A stretch of 36,378 bases of DNA. It comes from a virus. The position numbers and the translations under genes were made by a program. The notes beneath the pieces are model-generated. The model saw only the letters and a program-made list of their open reading frames with translations. It searched no databases and was not told the origin of the DNA. The stretch spans positions 1 through 36,378 of the IMG/VR virus record IMGVR_UViG_3300025584_000011, one strand, 5' to 3'. This document shows positions 1,673-18,393 of the stretch, one piece after another (the stretch's first letter is position 1; every line of letters starts with the position of its first letter).

Positions 1673-2529
1673 TAATCTCCCTCACTAAATGGATTTGATT
1701 CAGAAAAATCAATAATAGAATCCGCTTCTGTTTCAATAGTTATATTATTTGCAGAAGCATCATTAACAAATATTTGAGTATTTGGTGTTGTAGTTACAGT
1801 AAAATATGCACTGCTTGTATTACCGACAACATTTTGAGAGGTAGTAAAGGTGCCCACTAAATCCGTTAATTTCAACAGTCTATCAGTAGAATTCCAAGAC
1901 AACACTCTTCCCTTCGTATTTGCAGAACTTTCTGTGCTTCCAACATATACATATTCATCATCTACATAATTTCCTGTTCCACCAGCATCCAATGATATTT
2001 CAATAGCATATGCATATTTATCTTCTATTGAGTCTATATCGTCAATTCCAGTATCAATTTTTTGATCATCATATTGAAATAGTTCACACGTTAAATCAAA
2101 TATTGGTAATTTACCAAATTGATAAAACATAGATTCATGTTCGACAAATCTAACTTCGTATAATTTTTTATTTAAAGGAAAAAATATTACATCGCCTTCT
2201 CTTGGCCTATCATAACCAGTATCTAAATTTTCCCATCGTCTTCTAGCTACAGAAAAAACTACTTGATCTCTTATTTCTAATCCAAATCTTGAAATAAAGT
2301 CGCCCTCTCCCTCAAAACCGTCAACTGATTTAACATACATTTCTATTAAATGAGATTGGTTAAATTGTGAAATAGTATCTTCTCCCAAAAGAAGATCTTC
2401 ATTCATATATTGTCTTGGAAGGTAATAGTTATCCACACCAAAATTTTTTATCGATTCTATAATCAAATCTTGATGTAAATTTTGTTCTGATGTATTGTGT
2501 AGATGATTAAAATAAGAATTAGTAGGCAT
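1669..2529 (-). CDS. 14: Neck protein gp14
   Basis: This 286-aa protein is the counterpart of T4 gp14 (256 aa), which with gp13 seals the filled head and binds the tail. Typical features are the N-terminal NSYFNH..N..EQNL.QDLIIE segment (residues 4-25), the G.DNYYLPR motif (31-39), a GDFISRFGLEIRDQVVFSVARRRW block (76-99) and RPREGDVIFFPL (108-119). Residues ~193-245 hold a beta-rich segment with a GSTESSANTKGRV motif and a VVGNTSSAYFTV motif, related to modules in gp13, gp7 and gp8. The C-terminus (DFSESNPFSEGDY) is typical of marine T4-like versions. Its ATG overlaps the gp13 stop (TAATG), implying coupled translation. Its own stop overlaps the end of the opposite-strand 116-aa gene. Confidence 0.92.
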   Translation of the reverse strand: MPTNSYFNHLHNTSEQNLHQDLIIESIKNFGVDNYYLPRQYMNEDLLLGEDTISQFNQSHLIEMYVKSVDGFEGEGDFISRFGLEIRDQVVFSVARRRWENLDTGYDRPREGDVIFFPLNKKLYEVRFVEHESMFYQFGKLPIFDLTCELFQYDDQKIDTGIDDIDSIEDKYAYAIEISLDAGGTGNYVDDEYVYVGSTESSANTKGRVLSWNSTDRLLKLTDLVGTFTTSQNVVGNTSSAYFTVTTTPNTQIFVNDASANNITIETEADSIIDFSESNPFSEGDY

Positions 2530-3533
2530 TATCCTGGACCAACCATAAAGTCAACTGGTAATTCATATTTAAGAGATGCTTGTTCTTCTGTATCTCTCAA
2601 TTCTTGATTTGCTTCTTCAAATAAGGTTCTCCCATTTAATGTGGTTCCTCCGGGAAGCTGTACCCCTTCATATTTTATTAAATTAGCCCCCCACTGTCTT
2701 TTAAAAAGGGCTGTAATATATCTTTTTAAAAACATATCATTATATACATCTGCAAATGCAGTAGGATCAATTATTCTATATGCTTCTACTACAAGATATT
2801 CATCGACTTCAAGATCATTTTCCCAATCTAAGTCTATGTACAATCGATTTTGATGTCTATTAAATCGTAGAGGTTTTTTTCCTACGAACATGTCATTCAA
2901 CAATTGTAAATGTTGCATTGACATTTTATAATTTATTATAGAAGTAGCAGTAAGATAAGGCATTTCATTTAAATGAAATTGATATCTAAATGAAAACATA
3001 CTGCTTGATAATTGCCCCCCGCCAGTATCTTGTATATCAAAAATACCAGTCACACCAATTATGGAGTCATTTAATGTAATATAATGATTATCCATATCAC
3101 CAAAAGTAACTAACGATGCATCAGTATCGGCTACTGCGGCCGTCCCACTTGAACTTCCAGTTATCGTTTCAGCATTTGAAAAACTAGATGTAACATCATT
3201 ATTTGAAATTCCATTCGTATCGTTATGTGATTTGAATGTTATAATAGTAGAATTTGCCGAAACTACAGTTGCAGTTGCATTTGATGTTCCACCAGTTATT
3301 GTCTCGCCATCAGTAAAACCTGTTCCAGAAATAATTTTAACAGTTGAGCCAGTAATTTGATGTATATTATACATTCTTTCAACACCATCAAAATGATATT
3401 CTTGAAAAAATTGTAACCCCTCATCAATTCGATCTTCTAATTGATCATCTTCTACATTTATTTCAATAACCGGTTGCCCTAATGTTCTAAGACAATATTG
3501 TTTTAACTCTTCTCTTGTACTAGGTTTTGCCAT
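2529..3533 (-). CDS. 13: Neck protein gp13
   Basis: This 334-aa protein is the counterpart of T4 gp13 (309 aa), the head-completion/neck protein. The start MAKPSTREELKQYCLRTLG and INVEDDQLEDRIDEGLQFFQEYH (residues 25-47) are diagnostic of marine T4-like gp13. The conserved second half contains the YITLNDSIIGVTGIF strand (151-165), the NYKMSMQHLQLLNDM helix (201-215), DLDWENDLEVDEYLVVEAY (234-252) and a C-terminal helix with WGANLIKYEGVQLPGG (281-296). Between residues ~66 and 142 there is a Thr/Ser/Gly-rich beta segment that looks inserted (see repeat entry). There is no clear Shine-Dalgarno; seven bases separate it from the upstream fibre gene. It is translationally coupled to gp14. Confidence 0.93.
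   Translation of the reverse strand: MAKPSTREELKQYCLRTLGQPVIEINVEDDQLEDRIDEGLQFFQEYHFDGVERMYNIHQITGSTVKIISGTGFTDGETITGGTSNATATVVSANSTIITFKSHNDTNGISNNDVTSSFSNAETITGSSSGTAAVADTDASLVTFGDMDNHYITLNDSIIGVTGIFDIQDTGGGQLSSSMFSFRYQFHLNEMPYLTATSIINYKMSMQHLQLLNDMFVGKKPLRFNRHQNRLYIDLDWENDLEVDEYLVVEAYRIIDPTAFADVYNDMFLKRYITALFKRQWGANLIKYEGVQLPGGTTLNGRTLFEEANQELRDTEEQASLKYELPVDFMVGPG
3108..3338 (-). repeat. Tandem 'GETITG..S.A.A.V' module inserted in gp13
   Basis: Residues ~66-142 of gp13 carry two copies of one short beta pattern: FTDGETITGGTSNATATV (residues 73-90) and FSNAETITGSSSGTAAV (118-134). The copies are separated by a strand-like linker. The conserved gp13 sequence resumes at DMDNHYITLNDSIIG. 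Similar units occur in gp14, gp7, gp8 and the 2287-aa protein. I infer that this is an insertion because the flanks fit the gp13 family and this part does not. Confidence 0.6.
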
Positions 3534-3540
3534 TTTTATC

Positions 3541-5262
3541 TTAATTAGTATTTACAATTGATCCACCAGTATCCCTTACTCCTAATAGATAAATTGCTGT
3601 AGTAGGATGTTGTGTGGTGAGAAACCCCCCGTGGGTACCTGTCCAAATTGATCCGTTTGCTGTGACTGCAAACATATCAGCAGACGAATTTGCAACTGTA
3701 AGAATTTTTGTTGTCGCTGTGGTAGATAATCCTTTAACCAATAAAGAAGTACCAGTCGCACTAGTACTAGTTGAAAGAAATTCACCCAATGGTTCTGTAT
3801 GAGCCTGATCAGACCAAATATTTATTCCTGGTTTATCTGCATTCTGTATAACACTAATTCCTATTCCTGCATCTGTTGTAACTCTTAGTCCCATTGTTCC
3901 AGTAGCACCTGTTGCATCTTGTACTATATCAAGAATTGCTCTAGCATTTGTTGAACTATTATTATCTGTAAGTTTTATCAAAGAACCATTGGCCGCATGT
4001 GAAGTACCAGTACCCAATCCATGATGTAATGAAAGTACATGACCCGTTTGAAATGAATCAGCATTAATGTCAAAAACATTTGCGGTTGTTTGAGCCGCAT
4101 CAATTGAAACTCCCATTTGGTCTACATCGTTTAAGTCTAAATACATTCCAGCTATTCCATCAGTCGAACCAACATTTACATGTAATTTACCACCTTGAGA
4201 TCCGATAGTGTCTCCGCCAGCAAGTTGCATATATCCACCATAATCATTACCGAATTCCACCGTATTAGCACCATCTGTAACTATATGCAAACTATCTGTT
4301 GAGTGATTATATACAAATCCTCCAGCATCAACATTATCAGGATCACCAAATGCAATAACACTATTTGATACATTATTTGAAAGTAGAGTCAATCCAACCG
4401 CAGTATTACCTTCTATCACCATCTCATCAGCAACAGCCGATACTGCGGTTGCTGTCTGTAAACCTTCTGCAAAATCTGTTCTTATGTGCAATCTACCTTT
4501 AGATGAAGTTGCAAGAGTTGGACTTGTCGTATATTCTGGAAAATTACCAATAGCAACATTAGAAGATCCTACATCTGTACCAAAAATAGGCCCGGTATTT
4601 GTTACAAGAACTGATGCACTATTTACGGATATATTTGCAGAATGCATAAATCCTCCAATAGAATATGCATTACTATATGTTCCATTAGAAAATGTTGCGC
4701 CAGTAAATAAATGAGGACCCGGAGAAGACACTGTAACAACTTTATCAGAAGCCGTAATATTAACGTTTACTTCATTAATTGTTCCACCGTCAATTGTGAC
4801 AAGGGAAACTGTACCTAAATCGGCAACCGTTGCACCCGTAAGTGTGATTACAGATGATCCATTTGCATTGAAATTTCGACCATTTAAATTTATTTCACAT
4901 TCATTTATTTGGGCTCTTTCAATTTTACTATCGGGACTAGCTCCAGAAATAGTTGCACCAGCATCTTCAACTAACGCAAATTTATCAACAGTTCCAATAT
5001 CAGTAACCGCGGCACCAGTAAAATCTACAATACCCCCAGTAAATATTAATCTAGAACCCGTTACATTTGACCCCGTGACAATATTTGCTGATATTGTGTT
5101 GATTAAAAACCCACCCAAAGAATTAGCAGAAATCAAATTAGATGTAGGATTTTCATCTGAATGCTCATTCAATACGGTGATAATTTGATTGGTTTTCAGG
5201 CGCCATTGCTCAAAAGTGTTAACCAATTCTACACTAGTAATACTAGTATCAGATATTGCCAT
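3541..5262 (-). CDS. Putative tail fibre / virion structural protein
   Basis: This 573-aa protein begins MAISDTSITSVELVNTFEQW followed by RLKTNQIITVLNEHSDEN. That short helical 'F..WR..TN.I' segment heads many tail-fibre-like proteins of marine phages. The remainder is a long, low-complexity beta-rich shaft full of Gly, Thr, Ser, Asn and Val with repeating strand patterns (for example LTGATVADLGTVSLVTIDGG). No C-terminal peptidase S74 chaperone or lectin fold is visible; the end is short (GVRDTGGSIVNTN). It lies between the baseplate genes and gp13, where T4 has gp11, gp12 and wac. A fibre or whisker role is inferred from that position. The start has a good AAGGA site, and the gene overlaps the preceding 76-aa gene by 14 bases. 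Confidence 0.72.
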   Translation of the reverse strand: MAISDTSITSVELVNTFEQWRLKTNQIITVLNEHSDENPTSNLISANSLGGFLINTISANIVTGSNVTGSRLIFTGGIVDFTGAAVTDIGTVDKFALVEDAGATISGASPDSKIERAQINECEINLNGRNFNANGSSVITLTGATVADLGTVSLVTIDGGTINEVNVNITASDKVVTVSSPGPHLFTGATFSNGTYSNAYSIGGFMHSANISVNSASVLVTNTGPIFGTDVGSSNVAIGNFPEYTTSPTLATSSKGRLHIRTDFAEGLQTATAVSAVADEMVIEGNTAVGLTLLSNNVSNSVIAFGDPDNVDAGGFVYNHSTDSLHIVTDGANTVEFGNDYGGYMQLAGGDTIGSQGGKLHVNVGSTDGIAGMYLDLNDVDQMGVSIDAAQTTANVFDINADSFQTGHVLSLHHGLGTGTSHAANGSLIKLTDNNSSTNARAILDIVQDATGATGTMGLRVTTDAGIGISVIQNADKPGINIWSDQAHTEPLGEFLSTSTSATGTSLLVKGLSTTATTKILTVANSSADMFAVTANGSIWTGTHGGFLTTQHPTTAIYLLGVRDTGGSIVNTN

Positions 5263-5479
5263 CTCTATCCTTACTTAATAATTTTAAAATTTTATTTACA
5301 TTTTGTTGTATATTAATTATTTCATACTTTAAATTATTTATTTCCGCTTCATTAGACATTATCGTATTTGTTTGTAATACTTTATGCCTATGTTTCAATA
5401 AAGCCTGTTGGTCCGTTGCAATAAGCGCATTAGAATAACCATCTCTGTGATATCTTGGATCATCTGTTTTTATTATCAA
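5249..5479 (-). CDS. Small conserved-looking protein with C-terminal coiled coil
   Basis: This 76-aa protein starts MIIKTDDPRYHRDGYSNALI. Its N-terminal half (DPRYHRDGYSNALIATDQQ) is polar and looks like a short binding peptide. The second half (from about NEAEINNLKYEIINIQQNV to ILKLLSKDRD) has heptad-like hydrophobic spacing, probably a coiled coil. Its ATG overlaps the stop of the 2287-aa gene (ATGA at 5476-5479), and its end overlaps the fibre gene start by 14 bases. This placement is strong evidence that it is really translated as part of the operon. It may be a small connector or assembly factor for the fibre. That is inference; the function is unknown. Confidence 0.8.
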   Translation of the reverse strand: MIIKTDDPRYHRDGYSNALIATDQQALLKHRHKVLQTNTIMSNEAEINNLKYEIINIQQNVNKILKLLSKDRDGNI

Positions 5480-8400
5480 GGAGCGCCCTCACTATCAAGA
5501 GCAATTGCACGTAAATTGATTAATTTAGGGATTCCTATAAAAGTATCTTGTGCAACTCTATCTAAAGTCATAACCAACTTAATCGCAAACGTTCTAAATT
5601 TTTCATATTTTCCACCAGTTGCAGATATATAAGCAATTTTTTCATCTATAGTCTTAAATTCAAATCGTTTAAAATCATTTTCATTTAATGAGTAAGTAGC
5701 GCTTGCTGTTTTTTGCTCCATAAGAAACCAGGGTTTTTCATCAAAAGATTCAGAATCATCCCCCGAAAGAACTTTATAATAAACATAAATGTTAGATCCT
5801 CTTGGCTTATATGCATCCATATACACTTTAAGATCCATTGCATCAAAACCCTCTTCTAATGTTACCCGTCTTGAAATATATCTAGCTTTTAAATTACCAC
5901 CAGAAGAAAATGATACCACATTAGCTGGTTGAATATTTACACTATTATTAGCGCCTTCACCAACAATATCAACAACTGCGGTTGTCGTTCTTCGTACATT
6001 ATCAGAAATAGAACTCGTTCCGTTAATATCCCAGTTAGTAATAGTTGGTGTAGAAATATATCCTGAACCACCATGCTTAACAGTAACTTGATTTATAATA
6101 CCATTTGCATGTACATTAGCGGCTATTGTTGCGGTATTTGAACCAATATCAGGAGCAGACACTACAAACACGCTTGTATTACCTTCTGATGACACATTAC
6201 TGGTTATACTTCCGACTTCCGCGGTGTAATAACCAGTACCAAAATCAGACACAACAATATCAGAATTTGATAAACTTCCATTGTTAATAAGATTTTCAAT
6301 AGTAATAACACCTGTTCTTGTCTCATCTAATATTGGAGATAGTAAAGTGTTTGCAGATTCAAAATAAACATTAATTGTAAAACTGCTATTTGCGACTTGT
6401 GGATATGTAATTTGTTTTTGTTTTTTGAAATCAACATTTTTATTTTCTTTAAAATGCACTCCAACATTTTTTGTTATTCCCGCTAAATCTGTTGCATGAT
6501 AATTAAAACTTGTATATGTGTTTGCAAAGCTGGTTATTTCTGTCGATAATTTAAAAGTATCTATAGTTGTATTTGAACTCGTGTTTCCACTTGACACATC
6601 AAAATTATCTAATCTGGCATATGCATTCGCTGAGGTAAATTCACATCTATTCAATTGAAACATTAAACCTTGATCCGGTAATTCTTCCCAAACACCTACA
6701 TTTGATGGATTGAAAAAACTTCCAACATAAGGCTGTTTTGTTATTTTCTTAGAAGTTCCAGTATGATAAGCACCATATTCAAATCCATAAAGTTTATATG
6801 CACTACTATTGGTTTGTACACAAATTGAATATTCGTCTGGAGCAAGAAAAATAGGATGATCAAATTTAAACATCGTTCTTGTACCCCTATCGGTATTGCT
6901 TCTATTTGCAGTATATGAATTCCCTAAAAATCCGTCAGGAAATCCTCCACTAGTATTTGCGATAGGAGTATTTGTATTTGCAGTAATTCTTCCAGGAGAT
7001 AAAACAACCTCGCTTCCGGGTATAATCAAGGAAGTGCTTGGCATTCCATTAATCATAGGTCTGATCTGTAGACTTACGGGAGATTTAATTCCCTGTGAAG
7101 CGTCTTTTCCACTAAAAAACAAAGTTACAGAATCAAGAAAAACACCTGTAGAATATTGATTTTTATCAATAAAAAAAGACTGAGACATAGGGTTCATATA
7201 ATCGGTAGACGTTGATTGTCTTCCGTCAGAAGTAGATCTTGTTATTCTTTCTTCTTTAATGTTTTCTCGTCTAGAAATTAAAGGTCTAGGCGAAACAATT
7301 CCTAAATCAGTTTTAGCATCAATCACTCCTGCTGAATGAAAAATTTCTTCGGCAACTGAGGTTGTAATAGCGGGAATATTGTCAGGATCATCTGTTAATC
7401 TAAAAAGATTTTGTGAACCAGCAAACTTACCAGAAGGAACATTGAAAACGCCCCCTACAACACCTTCAGAAGAAACTGTTAATTGAGAATCTTCAAAATT
7501 ATAATGGGAAATAGCAGAAATAGAACCGTTTGCTTGTGTCCTGTCTCCTTGGATTACGGTCCCAATAGTAAAAGAAGTTTGGGCCGACATATCCGTAAGT
7601 AAAACAGTACAATTATTTTGATTGTTTCTATCGCTCATGTAAATAATTTTAGCAGTATTGCTGGCATTTACTCCAGAGCCCTGAATTGTAACTTGTTCAA
7701 AATTTCCCGAAGTCGTTCTAAATACATTAGACGAACTTACGTTTGATAAACTCACGATTGAGGCTTGCTTTACATTAGCCGACATATTGCTATCAGCAAA
7801 ATAAGCATAAACATTTTTATTTGGCTTCAATCCTTTAGCAATAAAAGTTATTGATTGTTCTCTTACCTTTGGAACTATGCTTAAATTGACTGTTTTATTT
7901 CCGATAGATTTAATTATTTTTTCCGGTACACTTCCTGTACTCAATCCAGTCAATGTTTTAGTTTGATCTGTTGTTTTTGCTCTTCTATCATTATTTCTTA
8001 CATCACCGGTGTCTCTTATGCCTTCTTTAACATTGTTATTAATTTGAGTTCCTGACCAAATTTCCTCCCAATCATTCCAATGAGTCCCGTGTCCATTATA
8101 TGTTAATTCAGAAGAAGTCCAATTATCATATTGACCTTCAACGTTAACCTTTACTTGCACTAAACTACTTTGATCATACCACACATCACCATACGGATCT
8201 AGTTTCATTTGTCCTATATAATTCTGAACGGAGAATGGATTTATTTGAAAAGTTTTTTGGACATTTTTACCATCATTCGTTCCTGTAAGAGGCATTTGTA
8301 TAAACGTATTTGAAGAAAACGGTAATGTTAATATTCCGGAATTATTTACTAAAGTTGAAAAAGCGGTTCCACCTTCAGAATTTGCATTAAAATTTAATGG

Positions 8401-11400
8401 ATATAAATCTGAACTAAAGGATGGTCTTAATTGTCTCTTATCGTAGTCAATTGACATAGAATAATCTTTATTAAAAACATCCCCGACACTATGTCCCGCA
8501 AATGGGTCTACAAGAATTCCATTTTTAAACCGATCATTATTATTAGAATCAGTAATGATTAATCCGTCTGCTTCTTTTTCCAATAAGCTAAGAGAAACAT
8601 AATATTCGAGATTTTCAATTCTTCTTTCGAGCTTACCGACATCTCTCATCGTAAATCTCTTATTTTCAACATAATTTAATTTTACATCTTCTGCATTAAA
8701 AGTATATGCTGGTATTTCAAGATTATACAGTGTCATTGAATCTTCATTATCAGGAGGCAATTGCGAAAATTTATCAGAAACTCCTTCAATAACATCGAAT
8801 GTTTTATCTCTATTTAATACAATTTTATCTTTTCTTGAAATATAATATTCATAATCTGCATTAAATGTATAATCATAATCAGGCATTGCTTTTTCATTAA
8901 ATACATTAGATGTTGCTGTAATATCATTGATTTGCGAACTAGTTCCATCAGATGTTTCATATCCTATTCGTTTAGGCCTAAAATCGATCATATCTCGTAG
9001 TTCAACTTTTGTCCCAGTCGTTGGACTCGTATATGAAGGAATATTATCATATAGCGTATTGCCAGAACCAGCATACATATAAGAATCAACAGTAAAGGGA
9101 CCATAACCTGTGTGATTATAATAATCAACGATTGCTATTACTTGACCACTTGGTTTTTGTTCTCCGGTTTTTAACGTTATGGTTCCATAATCATAATAAT
9201 TGTCTTTTTGACCATTATCAAATATAAAGCTACTAGATATATTATGAGCATTTGCAGTATTAGACATAGCCTCAGATATCATAGCATTTGTAACTTCAAC
9301 ATCTTCATCTAACGAAGATACAATTGCGACTAAGTTTTTAATATCAGATATTTTTAAACTGTTAGTCACACTAGGCTGAGCATTTATCGATGTTCCGAAA
9401 TAAATTTGACCAGAATCTGCCTGAACGGTATTTGTCGAAGAAGATGTTATATTAGCAACTGTAACATTTCCTGATACTAGGGTTTTTGTACCAATACCAT
9501 CATTTGATCTTGTTGCTCCTGCTCCTTTAAACATCATTGTAGCATAAACATATATATTTTTGTTTGAATAGTTTGACGAACCTGCTCCACCATCCACATT
9601 CATGATCAATTGATCTCCAGTCTCGTTTAAGGTCATCGATCTATTGGTTCCCACCGAAGTACCTGAAGCATTACTAAATTCAATATAATCACCTTCTTTG
9701 TTTCCAAGGCTGGCTTCAGTACAAAAAACCAAATAATTTGAATCTATAATAGATGGAGAAATTGCTCCTGCACCAGTTGCAGGATAAAACAGTTCTCCTG
9801 GTTCTGAAGCCGTTAGAGTTACAGTATTACCCGTGAGGGTCGTTGTAAATGATCTTTTTAATTTATAACTAGCCTTTGACAAGCCTGCAAGTGTTTTATT
9901 TTGAAAAGGAAATACTAATGATCTTTGGTCTTCATTATTATCAAATAGAACAGTGTTTCCCGTTTCAGTTATATCATTTTTACCACTAATATCAATATTC
10001 ATAGCATTATCAATAACTGTTGGTGTACCAGCCGTTGTTGTCACAATAGAACTAATATCTTTAACACCAAAATTTAAAGAATAAGTTGTAGTAGCTTGAG
10101 TTGGTTGGGTCAATTCACTATTTAAAACGGCAGTATATGCAGTCGCCGGAGTTAAAGTTGTGCTAGCCCCAGTCCAAACAATAATCTCTCTAGTATCAGA
10201 AGTATTAACCCCCAAATAAGCAGTATTAACCGTTATTGTTGATCCAAACAAACAATTCACTGTAGGATAAGAAAATGCACCAGTCGTTGGTAATTTAATT
10301 TGAAAAGTATTTGCATCAGCGGCGCTTACAGTACCCTCAGTTTTATTAAATATAAAATCAAATAAATGAGCATCGTATATTGCAGGATATTTTATATGAT
10401 AAGTACCGTTTGCATCAGCACCGTACCCATATTCTGAGGTTACAGTAGACGATCTTCCTGATTTAAAATCAAGTTGTCTTAATCTTACTGTTCCTATTTT
10501 TGTATTTGCTACCGATGCGGCTGTAGTAGTATCAATACCTACGTATTTGAATGCTCCATTAGATATAAAAGAAATGCCATTTGATGTTACTGTTCCATGA
10601 AGTTGAGTTGTTGAAGGCCACTTAACTAAATGTAAATCCATTAAGTCGGCCCCAGTACCCCCAGACATTGAGTTAATAGATGCAGAATTTACACCTAAAG
10701 TAAAAGCAGTATTGGAGATAACATCTGTTACAACTGCATATGGCCCAAATTCAATCCCCTGTTTCTCTGCTGAAACTGTTTCTGTATCTCTGGCTTTATT
10801 TAAATTCACATATGTAGGGAATAAAGTTTCATGTTCAAATCCTTTAATATATGCTTTTCCTGGACTTAATTCCGCGGTTATTTTTGAAGAAACACCAATT
10901 CGTTGATTGATTCCCCCATCACCTAAAACCGTTCCAGTTGTTAATGTAAGAGACGTAGTATTTCCTATAGCGGCAACTTCTGCGGTTTTTCCAGTATTAC
11001 CAGAAAAGAATATAGTATCGCCGACATTTACATCTGCTATAAAATTTGAACCATTAGCCGTAATAATCGAACTTGCATTTGTTGATGTTCTGTCACTTGC
11101 TGTTCCTCCGATTTTATGATCAATAACATCAAGTACAAATGGTTTAACCGTAAAATCACCAGAAGCATCAAATGTTCTTCTTGCTAAAACCTTTTCAAGA
11201 TTTCCCATTATGGGAAATTTTATTTCTTCTATTTTTTCACCATTTTCTAATCTTAATAGTTCAATAAAATTAATATCCGAACTTCTAGCAATGGGATCAA
11301 TCACACCTGTTATATATACAGGAGTTCCAGTAGCAGGGGTTGATGGACTACCCTGTATCAAATAAGAAAATTCTGTAGTAGATCCGATTGCTGAAATTGT

Positions 11401-12339
11401 GTGTTTTCCATTATATTCTAATTCAGATATACCTGACACAACTACAACATCACCAATAGATAAATTATGATCAGTCGTTGTTGATATACTTACTATCCCC
11501 GATCTATTATCTTTTGTGTTAATGGCAAACGTAACACCGGACGAATTTATTGTCTTACCCGATTCGAAATACTCTTTTGTTGATAACACCAGTTCAATTT
11601 TGTATCTATTTGCCCCAGGTGCAGTATAATTAGGAGTCCCTATCGCATTATCTAAAAGCGAGGAATCTTCAATACTGGAAATGATATTTTCTACAATCGT
11701 TAATCCTATTCTTATGGAAGGATTGTCATTTTCAATATCTAAAATGAGATTTTGAAAAGGAGTTCGTACAAAATAACCACCAATATAAAATAATCCCTCA
11801 TTAATACTAATAACAGAACCCGCACCAGAAGCCAGAGATGTAATATCTGTCGATTCATCCAATCCATCAGCACTTCCGGCCACAGTCGCAAAAAAGACTG
11901 TTCCTGCATCAACTGTAGAAATCGTTTCATTGTCTAAAAATGCAATATTGTCAACATAATTTATCATTAAAACGTCTAAATTGTCAGTCGAAAACTGTTT
12001 ACTGGTTACGACTTCTGCTTTTGCACCAGATGTTTGACCTTGAATAATTCTACCGTTAAAATTAGAGGATATAATAGCAACACCAGAATATAATGGAGTC
12101 AATTTTAAAGAATTGATTTTATTATTTAAAATTAACTCTGCGCCCAAAATTTTAGAACCATCTTGATAGATACTATCTCCTACTTTCTCTAATTGAGTTT
12201 GCAGAATAGACTGTATCTGATTTAATTCTCTCGCCTGTACAGAATAGCCAGGCCGATATAGTATTTTATGAAAATTAGTTGATTCATCAAAATCATCATA
12301 ATAAGGTGATATGTTAAAATCTTGTGTTAATTTAGGCAT
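5476..12339 (-). CDS. Giant baseplate-periphery virion protein (DUF4815-like), 2287 aa
   Basis: The N-terminus (MPKLTQDFNISPYYDDFDES, then FHKILYRPGYSVQARELNQIQ and LQTQLEKVGDSIYQDGS) is the signature of large marine-phage virion proteins grouped as DUF4815. Residues ~92-112 hold an IIQGQTSGAKAEVV module. Residues 279-347 hold a 'D/HNL..GD.V.V.G...LEYNGKHTI' module shared with gp7. Residues ~440-470 hold another GDTIFFSGNTGKTAEV unit. A central region (1210-1300) has YTFNAEDVKLNYVENKRFTM and a helix KLERRIENLEYYVSLSLLEK. Residues ~2030-2105 have GTGYY and HGGSGYISTPTI strands. The C-terminus (2154-2287) is conserved-looking (RRVTLEEGFDAMDLKVYMDA). It directly follows gp8, where T4 has gp9 and gp10. 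A wedge-periphery or fibre-attachment role is inferred from that position. The start is fixed by GGAG upstream and a three-base gap to gp8. Confidence 0.85.
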   Translation of the reverse strand: MPKLTQDFNISPYYDDFDESTNFHKILYRPGYSVQARELNQIQSILQTQLEKVGDSIYQDGSKILGAELILNNKINSLKLTPLYSGVAIISSNFNGRIIQGQTSGAKAEVVTSKQFSTDNLDVLMINYVDNIAFLDNETISTVDAGTVFFATVAGSADGLDESTDITSLASGAGSVISINEGLFYIGGYFVRTPFQNLILDIENDNPSIRIGLTIVENIISSIEDSSLLDNAIGTPNYTAPGANRYKIELVLSTKEYFESGKTINSSGVTFAINTKDNRSGIVSISTTTDHNLSIGDVVVVSGISELEYNGKHTISAIGSTTEFSYLIQGSPSTPATGTPVYITGVIDPIARSSDINFIELLRLENGEKIEEIKFPIMGNLEKVLARRTFDASGDFTVKPFVLDVIDHKIGGTASDRTSTNASSIITANGSNFIADVNVGDTIFFSGNTGKTAEVAAIGNTTSLTLTTGTVLGDGGINQRIGVSSKITAELSPGKAYIKGFEHETLFPTYVNLNKARDTETVSAEKQGIEFGPYAVVTDVISNTAFTLGVNSASINSMSGGTGADLMDLHLVKWPSTTQLHGTVTSNGISFISNGAFKYVGIDTTTAASVANTKIGTVRLRQLDFKSGRSSTVTSEYGYGADANGTYHIKYPAIYDAHLFDFIFNKTEGTVSAADANTFQIKLPTTGAFSYPTVNCLFGSTITVNTAYLGVNTSDTREIIVWTGASTTLTPATAYTAVLNSELTQPTQATTTYSLNFGVKDISSIVTTTAGTPTVIDNAMNIDISGKNDITETGNTVLFDNNEDQRSLVFPFQNKTLAGLSKASYKLKRSFTTTLTGNTVTLTASEPGELFYPATGAGAISPSIIDSNYLVFCTEASLGNKEGDYIEFSNASGTSVGTNRSMTLNETGDQLIMNVDGGAGSSNYSNKNIYVYATMMFKGAGATRSNDGIGTKTLVSGNVTVANITSSSTNTVQADSGQIYFGTSINAQPSVTNSLKISDIKNLVAIVSSLDEDVEVTNAMISEAMSNTANAHNISSSFIFDNGQKDNYYDYGTITLKTGEQKPSGQVIAIVDYYNHTGYGPFTVDSYMYAGSGNTLYDNIPSYTSPTTGTKVELRDMIDFRPKRIGYETSDGTSSQINDITATSNVFNEKAMPDYDYTFNADYEYYISRKDKIVLNRDKTFDVIEGVSDKFSQLPPDNEDSMTLYNLEIPAYTFNAEDVKLNYVENKRFTMRDVGKLERRIENLEYYVSLSLLEKEADGLIITDSNNNDRFKNGILVDPFAGHSVGDVFNKDYSMSIDYDKRQLRPSFSSDLYPLNFNANSEGGTAFSTLVNNSGILTLPFSSNTFIQMPLTGTNDGKNVQKTFQINPFSVQNYIGQMKLDPYGDVWYDQSSLVQVKVNVEGQYDNWTSSELTYNGHGTHWNDWEEIWSGTQINNNVKEGIRDTGDVRNNDRRAKTTDQTKTLTGLSTGSVPEKIIKSIGNKTVNLSIVPKVREQSITFIAKGLKPNKNVYAYFADSNMSANVKQASIVSLSNVSSSNVFRTTSGNFEQVTIQGSGVNASNTAKIIYMSDRNNQNNCTVLLTDMSAQTSFTIGTVIQGDRTQANGSISAISHYNFEDSQLTVSSEGVVGGVFNVPSGKFAGSQNLFRLTDDPDNIPAITTSVAEEIFHSAGVIDAKTDLGIVSPRPLISRRENIKEERITRSTSDGRQSTSTDYMNPMSQSFFIDKNQYSTGVFLDSVTLFFSGKDASQGIKSPVSLQIRPMINGMPSTSLIIPGSEVVLSPGRITANTNTPIANTSGGFPDGFLGNSYTANRSNTDRGTRTMFKFDHPIFLAPDEYSICVQTNSSAYKLYGFEYGAYHTGTSKKITKQPYVGSFFNPSNVGVWEELPDQGLMFQLNRCEFTSANAYARLDNFDVSSGNTSSNTTIDTFKLSTEITSFANTYTSFNYHATDLAGITKNVGVHFKENKNVDFKKQKQITYPQVANSSFTINVYFESANTLLSPILDETRTGVITIENLINNGSLSNSDIVVSDFGTGYYTAEVGSITSNVSSEGNTSVFVVSAPDIGSNTATIAANVHANGIINQVTVKHGGSGYISTPTITNWDINGTSSISDNVRRTTTAVVDIVGEGANNSVNIQPANVVSFSSGGNLKARYISRRVTLEEGFDAMDLKVYMDAYKPRGSNIYVYYKVLSGDDSESFDEKPWFLMEQKTASATYSLNENDFKRFEFKTIDEKIAYISATGGKYEKFRTFAIKLVMTLDRVAQDTFIGIPKLINLRAIALDSEGAP
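11299..11505 (-). repeat. Shared beta module copy in the 2287-aa protein
   Basis: Residues 279-347 read ISTTTDHNLSIGDVVVVSGI, then LEYNGKHTISAIGSTTEFSY and GSPSTPATGTPVYITGVI. The same order of landmarks occurs in gp7 at 16249-16452: HGL..G, a valine-rich strand, G...LEYN, a TF.Y strand, then GSP.TPATGT. Two different virion proteins therefore carry one ~68-aa unit. Confidence 0.65.
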
Positions 12340-12342
12340 TCG

Positions 12343-14124
12343 TTAAAACTCCAATACAATCTTAAAATCTTCTACTTGATTTTGTAGTCTAGTAATTTTA
12401 GCTCTATTTTCAATATAAAGCACATCTCCACTATATAATTTCATTTCGGGTTGAATGACACCATCTGCTGAAATGGTTCCTGTTGAACTTGTGTTTGCAC
12501 CAGTCACAACATTGCTGTCTTCAAAACTGCCCTTTACTTCATTTATTCTTAGTGTTGTAGTATTTAGAAAATCAACAACAACACCATTAGCTGTACTAGT
12601 TGCTAAAGTCGATCCCGTATAAACTTTTTCGTTTGGTTGAAAATCACCCGCAACGCTTCCTAAAAATAAAGTGGTAGATTGATCAGATAATGAATCTGTA
12701 AAAAACGCAAGAGTATTTGCAGTTTGTAGGGGGTCTCTCAATAAACCAACTTGTCTATAATCATTAGATGTTGTAAATCTCCCCGATTCATTACCGGAAA
12801 TGCGAGTATCAATCAAAATTCTATTTCCACCTAATTCTTCAATAGCATTTATTCCATGTCCACCAATTGGTCCAATAATAACTGTGGCATTTGCCCCTGC
12901 TCCATGACTCGAATTAGCATAAATAGTTGCTTCCGCTACTGTATAATTTAATCCTGATTGAGTAACAACTATTTCAGTTACACCCAGTAACTCAGTTCCT
13001 CTCGCTCTCCCTTTAAACAATGATCCATCCCCATTTAATGTAATAGACGGAGTTACTTCATAACCGGAAACAGTATTTGGTGTAACACTAAAAGCAGGTG
13101 AAACAGTTATTCTCTGAAGCAAGGCATCATACTGAGTGATAGTAGTTTGTTCACCCTGTCCCGCATTATTTACTATAAAAATTGTTGAATTTACATATAG
13201 ATCATTTAGTGTATTATTTGCACCCGATGATAATTGCATTACGGTGGAATTAGTTACACTTGCAAAAAATCCAGTATCAAATTTATATGTTGATGCGGGC
13301 TCGACAGAAATTGTTGCTCTAGAATTAGAAGATTCCCCTAACACAATTTCACCAACAGTAAATTTCGTGTTTCCTGCACTAATATCATAAATTAAACTAT
13401 TTGCCGCTGAAACAAAACTGATAAGAGATCCATATTGATTGGATGTTTGACCATGCAACACTTCACCAATAATAAAATCTTGATCATCACCAGCTGAATT
13501 TATAGGACCAGCAGTAAATTCAGCGTTAAAATAACCATTCGCAGTTTTATTAATAATATCTATTTGCCCATCAACAGTAGCATCTTCGATTGCGGATTGT
13601 CTAGCATCTATACTTTTTTGTACAGGAATATAATCAGCCGTTACAAATTTTAAAGTATCCTGAGACGTAACTGTATACATGTATTTCCACTTATACCCAT
13701 CGGCAATTTCAATAACCGCTGTACCAGTACCAGTTGGTTGAATTGTTGAAGTACCATTTGATAAATTATTTTGTAAACACTTATATACATTTAAGTCTTC
13801 TGTGACAACATAAAAATTATTTGATAATTGGTCTGGATTTGTATGAGTATAAGCAGTATATGAAGTATTTGATTCCCAATTTATCCTTGCAATAACATGT
13901 TTAACATCTGCAGGAGTAACCTTTTTTGCGGCAATCATCTGATCCCAATAACTATATAAAGTGTTCGCTACAGCTTCATTAGGTGCAGGTGGATTGGTTT
14001 CATCATCCCACTCCTGAACTTTTCCTATAAACAAATATAAATTTGTTGCTGAAGTTTCACTAAGAGACTCAATAAATTGCTCTGCGTTGTGTATTTTAAA
14101 TTTTGTCGTTACTAGTCTAGCCAT
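12343..14124 (-). CDS. 8: Baseplate wedge protein gp8
   Basis: This 593-aa protein is a long version of T4 gp8 (334 aa), a baseplate wedge component. The N-terminal third is family-typical: VTTKFKIHNAEQFIESL (residues 5-21), NLYLFIGKVQEWDDE..PP (28-46), VIARINWESNTSY (77-89), NNFYVVTEDLNVYKCL (102-117) and DGYKWKYMYTV (142-152). The C-terminus (MKLYSGDVLYIENRAKITRL, then QNQVEDFKIVLEF) is also typical. Between them lies a beta-rich extension with at least four units of the 'GE.I.G..S' type (residues ~217-240, 255-275, 495-520, 532-555), plus a VVTQSGLNYTVAEATIY strand (386-402). This accounts for the extra length. A TATAAATA element sits five bases before the ATG. The gene ends three bases before the 2287-aa protein. 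Confidence 0.9.
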   Translation of the reverse strand: MARLVTTKFKIHNAEQFIESLSETSATNLYLFIGKVQEWDDETNPPAPNEAVANTLYSYWDQMIAAKKVTPADVKHVIARINWESNTSYTAYTHTNPDQLSNNFYVVTEDLNVYKCLQNNLSNGTSTIQPTGTGTAVIEIADGYKWKYMYTVTSQDTLKFVTADYIPVQKSIDARQSAIEDATVDGQIDIINKTANGYFNAEFTAGPINSAGDDQDFIIGEVLHGQTSNQYGSLISFVSAANSLIYDISAGNTKFTVGEIVLGESSNSRATISVEPASTYKFDTGFFASVTNSTVMQLSSGANNTLNDLYVNSTIFIVNNAGQGEQTTITQYDALLQRITVSPAFSVTPNTVSGYEVTPSITLNGDGSLFKGRARGTELLGVTEIVVTQSGLNYTVAEATIYANSSHGAGANATVIIGPIGGHGINAIEELGGNRILIDTRISGNESGRFTTSNDYRQVGLLRDPLQTANTLAFFTDSLSDQSTTLFLGSVAGDFQPNEKVYTGSTLATSTANGVVVDFLNTTTLRINEVKGSFEDSNVVTGANTSSTGTISADGVIQPEMKLYSGDVLYIENRAKITRLQNQVEDFKIVLEF

Positions 14125-14129
14125 ATATG

Positions 14130-14137
14130 TATTTATA
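14130..14137 (-). promoter_or_regulatory. Perfect late promoter element TATAAATA before gp8
   Basis: The minus strand reads TATAAATA, then CATAT, then the gp8 ATG, in the 27-base gap after gp7. The match to the T4 late consensus is exact. As at the 116-aa gene, the five-base spacing leaves no room for a leader with a ribosome-binding site. Confidence 0.65.
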
Positions 14138-14151
14138 TCAATAAAAAGTTT

Positions 14152-17100
14152 TTATGCTTGTATAAATTTAGATGTTTGATTATTAAATGTTGATAGTATT
14201 TCAAATTTAAAACTACCCTCGTTTGAGGTGTTTCCAGAGTATCCCGCATTAGCAGTACCAATTCCATCTTCAAGAAGCATCAGTCCCGTAGAACTTGAAT
14301 TAATAGACAAATTCATGAAATTATTTGAACCATCATAAGGATTCGATAAAGATATTGTACCTTCGTTTCTTTCTAGATCAAAATTTCTTAAAGTATGTAA
14401 GGTTACAGTTTGGTCAGTTGTTCCATCACCTATTGCTCTATTTAAAGTTAAAGTTTGATCCGTTATTGATAAAATTTTTGCTTTAAATAACTCATCAGAA
14501 GACACTGTAATAATATCATTTACCAATAAATCTTCACCAAAAACAGAATTTTGTCCTTCTAAATTAGTATTTCCTGATAAAATACCATTCGTATTGGTTG
14601 TCCCTCTTACTGTAGATTCAAGCAAATTATAATGCAGTATATCATCATTATCGAATTTAGTAGACGTAGGATCGATATTATTTAAAACAAACTTATCACT
14701 ATTTTCTGTAATAAAAAATTCACTTGATTCAGACATAAAATTAAAAGAAATATCCGTACTTATTGCAGTATTTCCCACTAAACATGTAGAATTAATTATT
14801 TCAATTACTTCTGCAAGTTGCAAAGTTGATGATGGTTTAATCCTATCATTTATTCTAAAATCTGCCTGAAAATCTGTCGATATACCAAAAATCACATTTG
14901 ATTTAATATATTGAAATGATGCAGTTGTAATTAGATCAGCATTTCGATATATACTATCTTCTAATGCAATAATTGATACTCCATCTTCTTCCAATACAAG
15001 ATCGCCTATCAAATCAGCAGAAGTTCCTTCTAAAATCATATTATATGTTGTTATATCAAGTAATGAAGTATTACCAACTGTAGAATTTGCGTTGCTTGAA
15101 ATGTCAAATTGACCATTACAAGAATGTAAAATTAATATATTATTATTTGATGCATCTAATTCATGTTTAAGCACAATCCCTGTTACCAATTCATTCGATG
15201 CGGCTCTTACTTGTGTAACTATACTATTTGATATAAAATTAGCACTAGCATTAAAATCATTTGGTATCGTTGTAGTTTGGGGATAAGTTGCACCCATTCC
15301 TATAATAGAAATAACATTTGTTGATGATGATGATATTGTTCCTGCTAAATAATTTTCTAATCTTAATTCTCCATAAGAAATTTCAAAAGATTGTTCATTG
15401 TCAATAATTACTTGGTCTCCCTCAGCATAGGTTAGTCCGAAATCAGTAGCTATTGGATTATTAAATGCTAATTTTACACTATCTTCTAATATAAGAATTC
15501 CTCCAGAATCTAGAGTCATATAAGCATTTACTGTTCCTTGTAATATATTAGATCCACCCGTTAAAGAAATTAATCCTAAAGATAAATTTTGATTATTATT
15601 AAATATAATTTCATGTTTTGGATCGGAAGATTCTTCTAACAAAATATCATCATCATCTTCTTTTATCGCAAAATCTCCGCCTTCATATTTTAATTTATTA
15701 TCAAAACCAACATTCAGTTCAACGAGTTCTGGTGTAAATTCTCCAAAAAGTTTTGTTCCCGTAGGATGTAATAATTTAAAAATTATTTCTTGATAGTCGT
15801 TGAGTTGTTTATTTACAATTAAAGAATAAGAATAGTCTTGATAAAAATCACTATCAATGAGTTTTTTATTAGAACTTAATTGCCCATTTTCATCAAGATA
15901 TATTCCCTCTTCTTTTCTCTGCGCACCAATTCTTGCAGTTAAAACCGCATTTTCTTCACCAAGACCAGGCAATGATACTTGAGGAGAAGATGTAAACCCA
16001 ATTCCAGGATCTTGAATTATTATTGATTTAATAGAACCGCTACCAACATCAGCGGCAGAAACACCAATAATTGCATTATTTCCTAAATCTCCCCCGGAAG
16101 AAAAAGCAACACCTGTATTTACAGTTGCAACCGCTCCCGATTTGGAACCAGTAATAATGTCATTTGAAGCAAAATCAACAGAAGAAAAAGCATATTCATC
16201 ATCAACACTATGACCAAAAGGCAATGTAAATTTTACAGAAATATTTTCATCATATGTAATAGTTCCGGTTGCAGGAGTTACTGGAGAACCGTTTACAGTA
16301 TACGTAAAAACAGTTGTATTTGCTAGTGCAATTGTTGCGTTCTTATTATATTCTAATTGATCTGCTCCTTTAATAGCAACTATTTGACCATCAACTAAAC
16401 CATGTTTCCCATATGTGATCACTGTTGCGGTCGTACTGGAACGTGTAATGCTTGTTATACCAAAATTTAATGTCTGATAACCACCCGTTATTTCTATTCC
16501 GCCTGATGAAGGATACCAATCACATGTTAAATTATTGTTAGCACTATTAAACAATTCTCTAGAATCAATACCCCGTCTATATTTTATTGTATTAATAAGG
16601 GATGATCCCCCAGAGACAAATCGTAAATGATATACTGATGGCTGTGAAGATGTTAAATAAGAAGAATTGTTTACAAGTATATCATTTCTTTGATCTGCAG
16701 GAATCTTTCGAGTTACTAGTTCATCTAGAAATTTTATAGTCTTTACTCTCATCCTAGAAGGATCGGCAATACTAGATTGAGAAGTAACTTCGCCAAAAAA
16801 TGTACCTATTTTATTTCCACTGTTTGAAGTAATTTTTTCTCCAGGAACAAAAAAATCTGTAATTGCAGTTGTTAAACTATGGTCATCAGGATCGGCATTT
16901 AAATTTAAAATTTGAACAGCCGCTTCTGTAAATTCTTCAGTGGTGGGCTCTACAATTGATATCGCAGGAATAGCCTCATACCCGGTACCTGATCCGGTTG
17001 TTTGTATACTAGAAATGTGTCCCGCATCTAGTTTAGAAAAACCCAACGCATCAATCAATTTATCACTTATATTTGATCCAGTATTTCCACTCAATTCATA

Positions 17101-18393
17101 TTCAGGATCATTTAAAAAAACTGATGAAAAATTTCCTATTATGTCTTCATTTTTCGAAAATGTAAAAGTATCAATGATATCTTTAACTTTACCATCAAAA
17201 CCACTTCCCAATGTAGCAAAATTATTTACAGTCAACGTTTTATTTTCAACATATCCGTCTCCACCATCAAACACAGTAAAATGAGTTAATGAACCAGCAC
17301 CAATAGTTGATATTTTTGCTTTTGCTTCAACGCCCCCTCCACCAGTGATTGTGAGTTTTTGGCCTATTTTATAGTTCGATCCTGCTGAAGAAATGATAAT
17401 TTCAGTTATTAATCCTTGTGATACACCTGTACCATACACTCCATCAACATCATTTGAAATAATTTCTTCGCCTACAATAAATGTTCCACTTTGGTCGGTT
17501 AAAAACAATTCCATTACATCAAAAACACCAGCCGCAAATTTCAAAACACGATTTACAATTCCAAATGCACCAGATCGACTTCCTGTAATAGAATGGCTTT
17601 CAAATGATGATACGGGATCTGAAGTAATAATTCTAATAGATTGATCTTGTTGCCAATTACCAGAAGAAGGCTTAAGTATGTCTATTTTTGGGGTATAAAA
17701 AGTAAGAGCTTGTGTATCATATAAAGACTTAAATAAAAAATCGTATGAAGCACTTGTTCCTTTTGATCTGTAAACATTAGATATATGTTTTATTAAACGA
17801 GATTTATCTGCACGTAGCTTCATGGGAAAGTTTACTAAAAATTCTTTAGTAAAATTATCCAACATAGATGATGTAACACTATCGATATCTCTTGATTTTA
17901 ATAATGTTCTTGATGCGAAAAGGGGATTTTTTTCAAAACTAATTACAGTACCAATTGTGCGATTATTCGATCCTTTTATTATTTCGCCTACTTCAAAATC
18001 TAATTTTGTTACATTTGTTACATAAATTTTACTTGACGCCGTATTAGTGTTTCTATCAACCCTACCCGTAGCACCTGAACTTAAACCAGTTATTGTTTCG
18101 TTTAAATCATAGGCGCTACTAGAATTTCTATTTCCCTCCAGTAATAAGTCATCAGACGTTTCTAAAATAAAACTACCTTGTTCAGACTCTAAATTAAAAT
18201 GATACTCGTCTTGAATCACCATTGAAATAGTTAATTCATGTGATTCCATCCATCTATAATAAAGTTTTAAAAACTCAGAAAAAATTGGACCTTCTTCTTT
18301 AACGAAATCTGGTAATTGAGTATCTATTAAATTAGATATTTTACCCACTAATTTAATATTATCTTCGTCTTTTAAGAAATCGTATTCTGACAT
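14152..18393 (-). CDS. 7: Baseplate wedge initiator gp7 (1413 aa)
   Basis: T4 gp7 (1032 aa) is the largest wedge protein and starts wedge assembly with gp10. This version has the marine-phage N-terminus (LVGKISNLIDTQLPDFVKEE at 15-34, then FSEFLKLYYRWME at 38-50). A helical block follows (MLDNFTKEFLVNFPMKLRAD, residues 177-196, and YRSKGTSASYDFLFKSLYD, 208-226). The conserved HLRFVSGGSSLINTIKYRRG (589-608) is next. Beta modules interrupt this frame: GLSSGATGRV (103-112), KGSNNRTIGTV (140-150), GSRSGAFGIV (271-280), GSKSGAVATV (749-758), an HGL module (648-715) and GGSGY-like strands (~337, 377, 467, 794). The C-terminal third carries acidic LE[ED] motifs. It is separated from gp6 by a single base. 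Confidence 0.88.
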   Translation of the reverse strand: MSEYDFLKDEDNIKLVGKISNLIDTQLPDFVKEEGPIFSEFLKLYYRWMESHELTISMVIQDEYHFNLESEQGSFILETSDDLLLEGNRNSSSAYDLNETITGLSSGATGRVDRNTNTASSKIYVTNVTKLDFEVGEIIKGSNNRTIGTVISFEKNPLFASRTLLKSRDIDSVTSSMLDNFTKEFLVNFPMKLRADKSRLIKHISNVYRSKGTSASYDFLFKSLYDTQALTFYTPKIDILKPSSGNWQQDQSIRIITSDPVSSFESHSITGSRSGAFGIVNRVLKFAAGVFDVMELFLTDQSGTFIVGEEIISNDVDGVYGTGVSQGLITEIIISSAGSNYKIGQKLTITGGGGVEAKAKISTIGAGSLTHFTVFDGGDGYVENKTLTVNNFATLGSGFDGKVKDIIDTFTFSKNEDIIGNFSSVFLNDPEYELSGNTGSNISDKLIDALGFSKLDAGHISSIQTTGSGTGYEAIPAISIVEPTTEEFTEAAVQILNLNADPDDHSLTTAITDFFVPGEKITSNSGNKIGTFFGEVTSQSSIADPSRMRVKTIKFLDELVTRKIPADQRNDILVNNSSYLTSSQPSVYHLRFVSGGSSLINTIKYRRGIDSRELFNSANNNLTCDWYPSSGGIEITGGYQTLNFGITSITRSSTTATVITYGKHGLVDGQIVAIKGADQLEYNKNATIALANTTVFTYTVNGSPVTPATGTITYDENISVKFTLPFGHSVDDEYAFSSVDFASNDIITGSKSGAVATVNTGVAFSSGGDLGNNAIIGVSAADVGSGSIKSIIIQDPGIGFTSSPQVSLPGLGEENAVLTARIGAQRKEEGIYLDENGQLSSNKKLIDSDFYQDYSYSLIVNKQLNDYQEIIFKLLHPTGTKLFGEFTPELVELNVGFDNKLKYEGGDFAIKEDDDDILLEESSDPKHEIIFNNNQNLSLGLISLTGGSNILQGTVNAYMTLDSGGILILEDSVKLAFNNPIATDFGLTYAEGDQVIIDNEQSFEISYGELRLENYLAGTISSSSTNVISIIGMGATYPQTTTIPNDFNASANFISNSIVTQVRAASNELVTGIVLKHELDASNNNILILHSCNGQFDISSNANSTVGNTSLLDITTYNMILEGTSADLIGDLVLEEDGVSIIALEDSIYRNADLITTASFQYIKSNVIFGISTDFQADFRINDRIKPSSTLQLAEVIEIINSTCLVGNTAISTDISFNFMSESSEFFITENSDKFVLNNIDPTSTKFDNDDILHYNLLESTVRGTTNTNGILSGNTNLEGQNSVFGEDLLVNDIITVSSDELFKAKILSITDQTLTLNRAIGDGTTDQTVTLHTLRNFDLERNEGTISLSNPYDGSNNFMNLSINSSSTGLMLLEDGIGTANAGYSGNTSNEGSFKFEILSTFNNQTSKFIQA
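16249..16452 (-). repeat. Shared beta module copy in gp7
   Basis: Residues 648-715 of gp7 include TATVITYGKHGLVDGQIVAI, then LEYNKNATIALANTTVFTYT and GSPVTPATGTITY. It matches the unit at 11299-11505 in the 2287-aa protein, landmark for landmark. It is followed at once by a short 'GSKSGAVATV' unit of a second module type. Confidence 0.65.

What the first reader, a model, noticed from the sequence alone, without database searches (positions are those of the whole stretch)
2529..18393. A short 'GE.I.G..S.A.A.V' beta unit recurs across neck, wedge and peripheral baseplate proteins
Seen in sequence: gp13 (FTDGETITGGTSNATATV; FSNAETITGSSSGTAAV), gp14 (YVGSTESSANTKGRV; VVGNTSSAYFTV), gp8 (GEVLHGQTSNQYGSLI; GEIVLGESSNSRATI; VVTGANTSSTGTIS), gp7 (ITGLSSGATGRV; GEIIKGSNNRTIGTV; ITGSRSGAFGIV; ITGSKSGAVATV) and the 2287-aa protein (IIQGQTSGAKAEV). 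Proteins with unrelated cores share the same ~20-30 residue unit. This looks like a small exchangeable surface module of the virion, perhaps for glycan or capsule contact, shell packing, or trimer interdigitation. T4 gp8 and gp13 are shorter and would lack it.
Basis: partly seen in the sequence, partly recalled or inferred. Interest (0 to 1): 0.6.

Follow-up and report, generated by a model that had tools for sequence, protein, structure and literature searches.

The report
Recurring insert domain in phage virions
The repeated motif is real: it marks a small, apparently uncatalogued beta-rich domain of about 60 residues, two similar halves in tandem, that marine viruses of bacteria have inserted into loops of many otherwise unrelated virion proteins; it most likely serves as a structural add-on, but its job has not been tested.

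Summary
All 12 quoted strings exist. They are halves of a ~55-65 aa domain, two 'F..GE.I.G.tSgA.a.V' units in tandem. One such domain lies in gp13, one in gp14, two in gp8, two in gp7 and one in the 2287-aa protein; gp7 also has a lone unit. Profiles built without the tested protein still find it in each (15-47 bits; best of 100 shuffled proteomes 12 bits). Profile-profile comparison links most copies at 90-98% probability; reversed controls stay below 3%. AlphaFold models of gp13 and gp8 show six strands, A-B-C-A'-B'-C', set between core strands matching T4 gp13 and gp8. Homologues with and without the domain exist. Among 225 marine gp13/gp14 loci all four presence/absence combinations occur, yet the tree needs only about three changes each. 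The domain is therefore modular but position-stable, not freely swapped now. Exact-motif scans find it mostly in viral contigs, also in an SU10-like adaptor, a nozzle-like tail protein and a tailspike. No Pfam family covers it, no PDB sequence resembles it, and no paper in the library prints the motif. Function is untested. Structural packing or reinforcement fits best; glycan contact is unsupported. T4's structural cluster lacks the domain.

The parts
3093..3350 (-). paired-unit domain in gp13 (aa ~62-147), inserted between core strands 51-59 and 158-166
   Evidence: model strands 63-69, 78-81, 87-93, 97-104, 123-126, 132-135; absent from T4, HTVC008M, P-SSM2, OC, Mosig and S-SZBM1 gp13; held-out HMM 47.1 bits
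1780..1974 (-). paired-unit domain in gp14 (aa ~186-250), in the C-terminal arm
   Evidence: held-out HMM 14.8 bits; hhalign to gp8b 97.8%; absent from the gp14 of 89 of 225 complete loci
13297..13503 (-). gp8 pair 1 (aa ~208-276)
   Evidence: strands 199-203, 222-225, 230-238, 243-248, 260-263, 269-272, pLDDT 90-95; absent from many gp8 homologues
12460..12678 (-). gp8 pair 2 (aa ~483-555), between core strands 456-463 and 567-577
   Evidence: strands 484-492, 500-503, 512-520, 524-532, 539-542, 548-557, pLDDT 91-94; T4 gp8 has a short loop here
17929..18126 (-). gp7 pair a (aa ~90-155)
   Evidence: held-out HMM 22.8 bits; hhalign 98.2% to gp8a and 97.6% to gp13
17404..17610 (-). gp7 pair b (aa ~262-330), more divergent
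   Evidence: hhalign 96.8% to p2287, 95.9% to gp7a, 91.9% to gp13; held-out HMM only 6.4 bits
16108..16182 (-). single unit in gp7 (aa ~738-762)
   Evidence: hhalign 64% to gp13 and 82% to gp7a over ~22 columns; 30.3 bits with the iterated HMM (not held out)
11875..12069 (-). pair in the 2287-aa protein (aa ~91-155), second unit degenerate
   Evidence: held-out HMM 18.4 bits; hhalign 96.8% to gp7b

Best explanation
The repeated motif is the signature of one homologous, undescribed, phage-associated beta domain (~55-65 aa, six short strands, two pseudo-repeats of A-B-C). It was duplicated and inserted long ago into loops, in gp13 and gp8 at the tip of a core beta-hairpin, of several otherwise unrelated virion proteins of marine T4-like phages and also of other tailed phages. 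Because both ends of the module sit on neighbouring antiparallel strands, it can be added at a hairpin tip without disturbing the host fold (inferred from the models). Its most likely role is mechanical: extra packing surface or spacer at the outer edge of the neck and wedge rings. Shown: homology, insertion relative to relatives, strand order in two models, position-stable inheritance. Inferred: the hairpin-tip rule as a general rule, and the mechanical role.
For: Homology: held-out HMM and profile-profile tests with controls. Insertion: gp13, gp14 and gp8 homologues with and without it. Models: gp8 mean pLDDT 90.8, core matches T4 gp8 (1n7z, 5hx2); gp13 core matches T4 gp13 (9mkb, 9lu4, 9lu6). 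Mechanical role: the gp14 copy lies in the arm that contacts gp15 in T4, the gp13 copy in the peripheral swing domain (PMC12270204); the gp13 insert is not hypervariable (44% identity against 41% for the rest of the swing region in distant pairs); recurring residues are a strand-entry aromatic, GE and G at turns and beta-strand hydrophobics.
Against: No function has been tested. In closer gp13 pairs the insert varies more than the rest (62% against 73-80%), which also fits a surface role. The gp13 model as a whole is modest (mean pLDDT 67.6) although the insert is its best part. Presence in gp13 and gp14 is uncoupled, so no obligate contact between those two copies can be claimed.
Confidence: 0.6

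Rival explanations
1. The module is a weak adhesion domain (glycan, capsule or particle contact) displayed on the virion, like Ig-like or BACON domains.
For: Present in a tailspike (L412), and PHROG tail-fibre families match; the insert evolves faster than the helical core in close gp13 pairs; beta-rich, Thr/Ser/Gly-rich.
Against: Also in neck and adaptor proteins, and in the gp14 arm that faces gp15 in T4 (PMC12270204); no conserved aromatic or ligand-like surface set; no significant carbohydrate-binding family match.
Confidence: 0.2
2. Non-adaptive promiscuous insertions: a domain that spreads because it folds alone and is tolerated at hairpin tips, with no common function.
For: All four gp13/gp14 presence combinations; different sequences fill the same gp13 loop in S-CAM9 and S-8S56; scattered across many families.
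Against: Retained in whole clades with conserved turn residues, so at least purifying selection on folding.
Confidence: 0.18
3. Chance or convergent low-complexity Thr/Ser/Gly beta sequence.
For: Short motif, biased composition; identity between positions only ~26%.
Against: Held-out HMMs beat 100 shuffled and the reversed proteomes; hhalign over 45-66 columns with reversed controls; same six-strand order in three modelled copies.
Confidence: 0.02

Closest known systems
Promiscuous Ig-like domains of tailed phages (e.g. Hoc-type; PF13205 Big_5 in the window's own 1310-aa protein)
   Same: Small beta domains added to virion proteins and present or absent among relatives.
   Different: About 60 aa with two pseudo-repeats; no Ig-like Pfam model matches it; in gp13 and gp8 set into core hairpins rather than added in tandem at an end.
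BACON tandem repeats of crAss-like phages (PMC6949934, abstract only)
   Same: Repeated beta module in phage structural proteins.
   Different: No match to any BACON model; here spread over several unrelated proteins, one or two per protein.
T4 gp13 domain III (fibritin-binding, aa 190-239) (PMC12270204)
   Same: A lineage-specific addition to gp13.
   Different: Different site and sequence; binds fibritin in T4; absent from marine gp13.
Small beta-barrels (SPT5 KOW, eIF2-gamma domain III, V/F-ATPase N-terminal barrel)
   Same: Weak Foldseek hits of the gp13 and gp8 models.
   Different: E 0.003-1 with probability mostly <=0.2, best 0.57: not evidence of kinship.

Membership tests
Homologous repeat family (common origin of the copies) | Held-out profile finds each copy above shuffled and reversed controls | tested here: met
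   gp13 47.1, gp7 22.8, gp8 20.9/16.4, p2287 18.4, gp14 14.8 bits against max 12.0; gp7b alone not (6.4)
Homologous repeat family (common origin of the copies) | Profile-profile similarity between families across the domain | tested here: met
   gp14 and gp8b to p2287 and gp14 to gp7b are the weak links
Insertion domain (not family core) | Homologues lack it while the flanking core aligns | tested here: met
   gp13; gp8 pair 1; gp14; SU10-like adaptor:
Insertion domain (not family core) | Separate structural element in models | tested here: met
   (DSSP and pLDDT; coordinates not available for measuring surface exposure)
Ig-like / FN3 / BACON / known CBM families | Match to a Pfam profile at its cut-off | tested here: not met
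   best YDG domain E 0.0014 for one of 20 members, none of the named families
Recently exchanged module | Copies within a genome more alike than between genomes, or many gains and losses | tested here: not met
Glycan-binding module | Binding to a sugar | not testable with these tools
   needs purified domain
SH3-like / KOW small barrel | Fold match of the isolated domain | tested here: inconclusive
   only whole-protein models could be searched; weak hits

The most novel reading that the evidence does not exclude
An undescribed phage-associated insertion domain that spread across T4-like and other tailed phages and entered head-tail adaptors of two lineages (T4-like gp13 and an SU10-like adaptor) in the same part of the protein, acting as a general add-on for bracing virion rings, alongside other modules that use the same loops.
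Probability: 0.3. Interest if true: 0.6.

Novelty: new member of a known kind. Interest (0 to 1): 0.48.

Why it matters
It gives a named, searchable domain to stretches of marine phage neck, wedge and fibre proteins that lack a Pfam annotation, helps explain why cyanophage and pelagiphage structural proteins outgrow their T4 counterparts, and warns that shared annotations such as 'tail fiber' between such proteins can come from this module alone. It also offers a natural series of gp13, gp14 and gp8 with and without the insert to test what additions to virion rings do.

Tried and rejected
The first 22-column seed HMM built from the window copies was circular and reached few other phages; replaced by paired-domain and held-out profiles. 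One PHROG/Pfam/tblastn round used the wrong L348 ORF, the capsid gene (first protein); redone on the right ORF. Some hhalign values were stale output; redone with a guard, which also reproduced the key values. The first tree counted gp14 genes cut off at contig ends as domain-less; redone with complete genes only. gp13 and the SU10-like adaptor cores could not be aligned by profile (0.3%), so the equivalence of their insertion sites is not claimed as shown. The S-CAM9 gp13 insert is not this domain (0.1-0.4%) and only weakly like the gp7 'HGL' module (29%). The domain profile was too divergent for the search for related loci in cellular genomes.

Full report
The window is a 36.4-kb IMG/VR virus record with the wedge and neck genes of a T4-like marine phage: Pfam and PHROG hits identify gp6, gp7, gp8, gp13 (head-tail adaptor) and gp14 (head closure).

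What repeats is a domain, not a lone motif. Two units, each 'F..GE.I.G.tSgA.a.V' followed by a hydrophobic strand, stand in tandem over ~55-65 residues in gp13, gp14, twice in gp8, twice in gp7 and once in the 2287-aa protein; a further single unit lies in gp7. To test chance, HMMs were built from all families except the one tested. They score the left-out proteins 14.8-47.1 bits, while the best hit among 100 locally shuffled window proteomes is 12.0 and among reversed proteins 4.3; gp7 copy b alone does not pass this test (6.4 bits). Profile-profile comparison gives 90-98% for most pairs, over 44-66 columns except gp13 to p2287 (20 columns), with reversed controls at or below 2.5%. The links from gp14 and gp8b to p2287 are weak (5%, 2%), as is gp14 to gp7b (25%); those copies are tied in through gp7 and gp13.

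It is an insertion. gp13 of T4, HTVC008M, P-SSM2, Mosig, S-SZBM1 and the Ochrobactrum phage has no such domain between the 'H..T' strand and 'NYI.[VM]P..V..V..VF', whereas the freshwater BUCT-ZZ01 has it there and S-CAM9 and S-8S56 carry a different sequence in the same loop. gp8 pair 1 is absent from many gp8 homologues; pair 2 occurs across the marine gp8 sampled and not in T4. In gp14 it lies in the C-terminal arm, which in T4 binds gp15; the gp13 site lies in the T4 'swing' domain of the peripheral ring (PMC12270204).

Structure. AlphaFold gives gp8 a mean pLDDT of 90.8 and gp13 67.6, the gp13 insert being the best-modelled part (77-85). All three modelled copies show the strand order A-B-C-A'-B'-C'. 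In gp13 it lies between core strands 51-59 and 158-166, in gp8 pair 2 between 456-463 and 567-577. The cores match T4 gp13 (9mkb, 9lu4, 9lu6, 9lu7) and T4 gp8 (1n7z, 5hx2). Other fold hits (small barrels of SPT5, eIF2-gamma, ATPases) are weak and not used.

Evolution. Among 225 loci with complete gp13 and gp14, presence is ++ 62, +- 15, -+ 74, -- 74, with cleanly two-peaked scores; the core tree needs three changes for each gene. Copies at the same position in different genomes share 37.6% identity; copies at different positions share 26.5% within a genome and 25.8% between genomes. So the module was inserted rarely and then inherited in place; recent exchange is not seen.

Spread. Members of the domain match 10 PHROG families, but no Pfam family beyond single weak hits, no PDB sequence (best E 0.017, to elongation factor 1-gamma, over 23 positions), and none of six motif spellings occurs in any paper of the library. 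The exact pattern GETITGxTSGATA has 8 matches in 257 Gb of cellular genomes, two of them in proteins that match the window's own gp7 and p2287 families, and at least 120 in viral contigs. Viral carriers outside the window's families include an SU10-like head-tail adaptor whose relatives CRP-901 and DSL-LC04 lack the insert, a tail protein of PHROG 376 (L388) and a pectin-lyase-type tailspike (L412). T4's structural cluster (24 kb) and 50 kb of HTVC008M contain no copy above threshold.

Function. Nothing here measures it. Placement in the gp14 arm, in the gp13 ring and in adaptors, conservation of turn residues, and an insert rate close to that of the neighbouring swing region favour packing or spacing; the faster change in close gp13 pairs and the tailspike copies leave adhesion open. 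From T4 stoichiometry (gp13 12, gp14 6 copies, PMC12270204; gp8 12 and gp7 6, general knowledge) a virion would hold some fifty or more copies of the domain, an inference.

Noticed in passing
window gp7 aa 650-715 and p2287 aa 265-330: A second shared module, 'HGL.dGq.V.I.G...[LY]N...' related to E1_FCCH (PF16190, below cut-off), shared by gp7 and the 2287-aa protein at 97.8%; similar text in the 1310-aa protein and in L388.
   Followed up: partly
window gp8 aa 385-420 and gp7 aa 325-380: A third module, the 'GsGYt..p.v' repeat, shared by gp8 and gp7 (89%) and expanded in gp14 of S-CAM9 and P-SSM2.
   Followed up: partly
L084:26336-27457 (S-CAM9 gp13) and L167 (S-8S56 gp13): The gp13 loop that holds the domain in the window carries an unrelated ~110-aa insert here: a possible insertion hotspot.
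   Followed up: partly
L348:3295-4197: SU10-like adaptor (PF24175) with the domain replacing a short loop near a Y-LP motif; relatives lack it.
   Followed up: yes
L039 gp14 (798 aa): gp14 roughly three times the usual length through stacked inserts in the C-terminal arm.
   Followed up: no
L331, L334, L335 (Mesorhizobium genomes): Tailspike-like protein with three copies of the domain by HMM, in three Mesorhizobium genomes.
   Followed up: no
window 21009-24941: 1310-aa protein with Big_5 Ig-like stretches (PF13205) and possible degenerate units such as 'GDTFLGTTSKGYGQI'.
   Followed up: no
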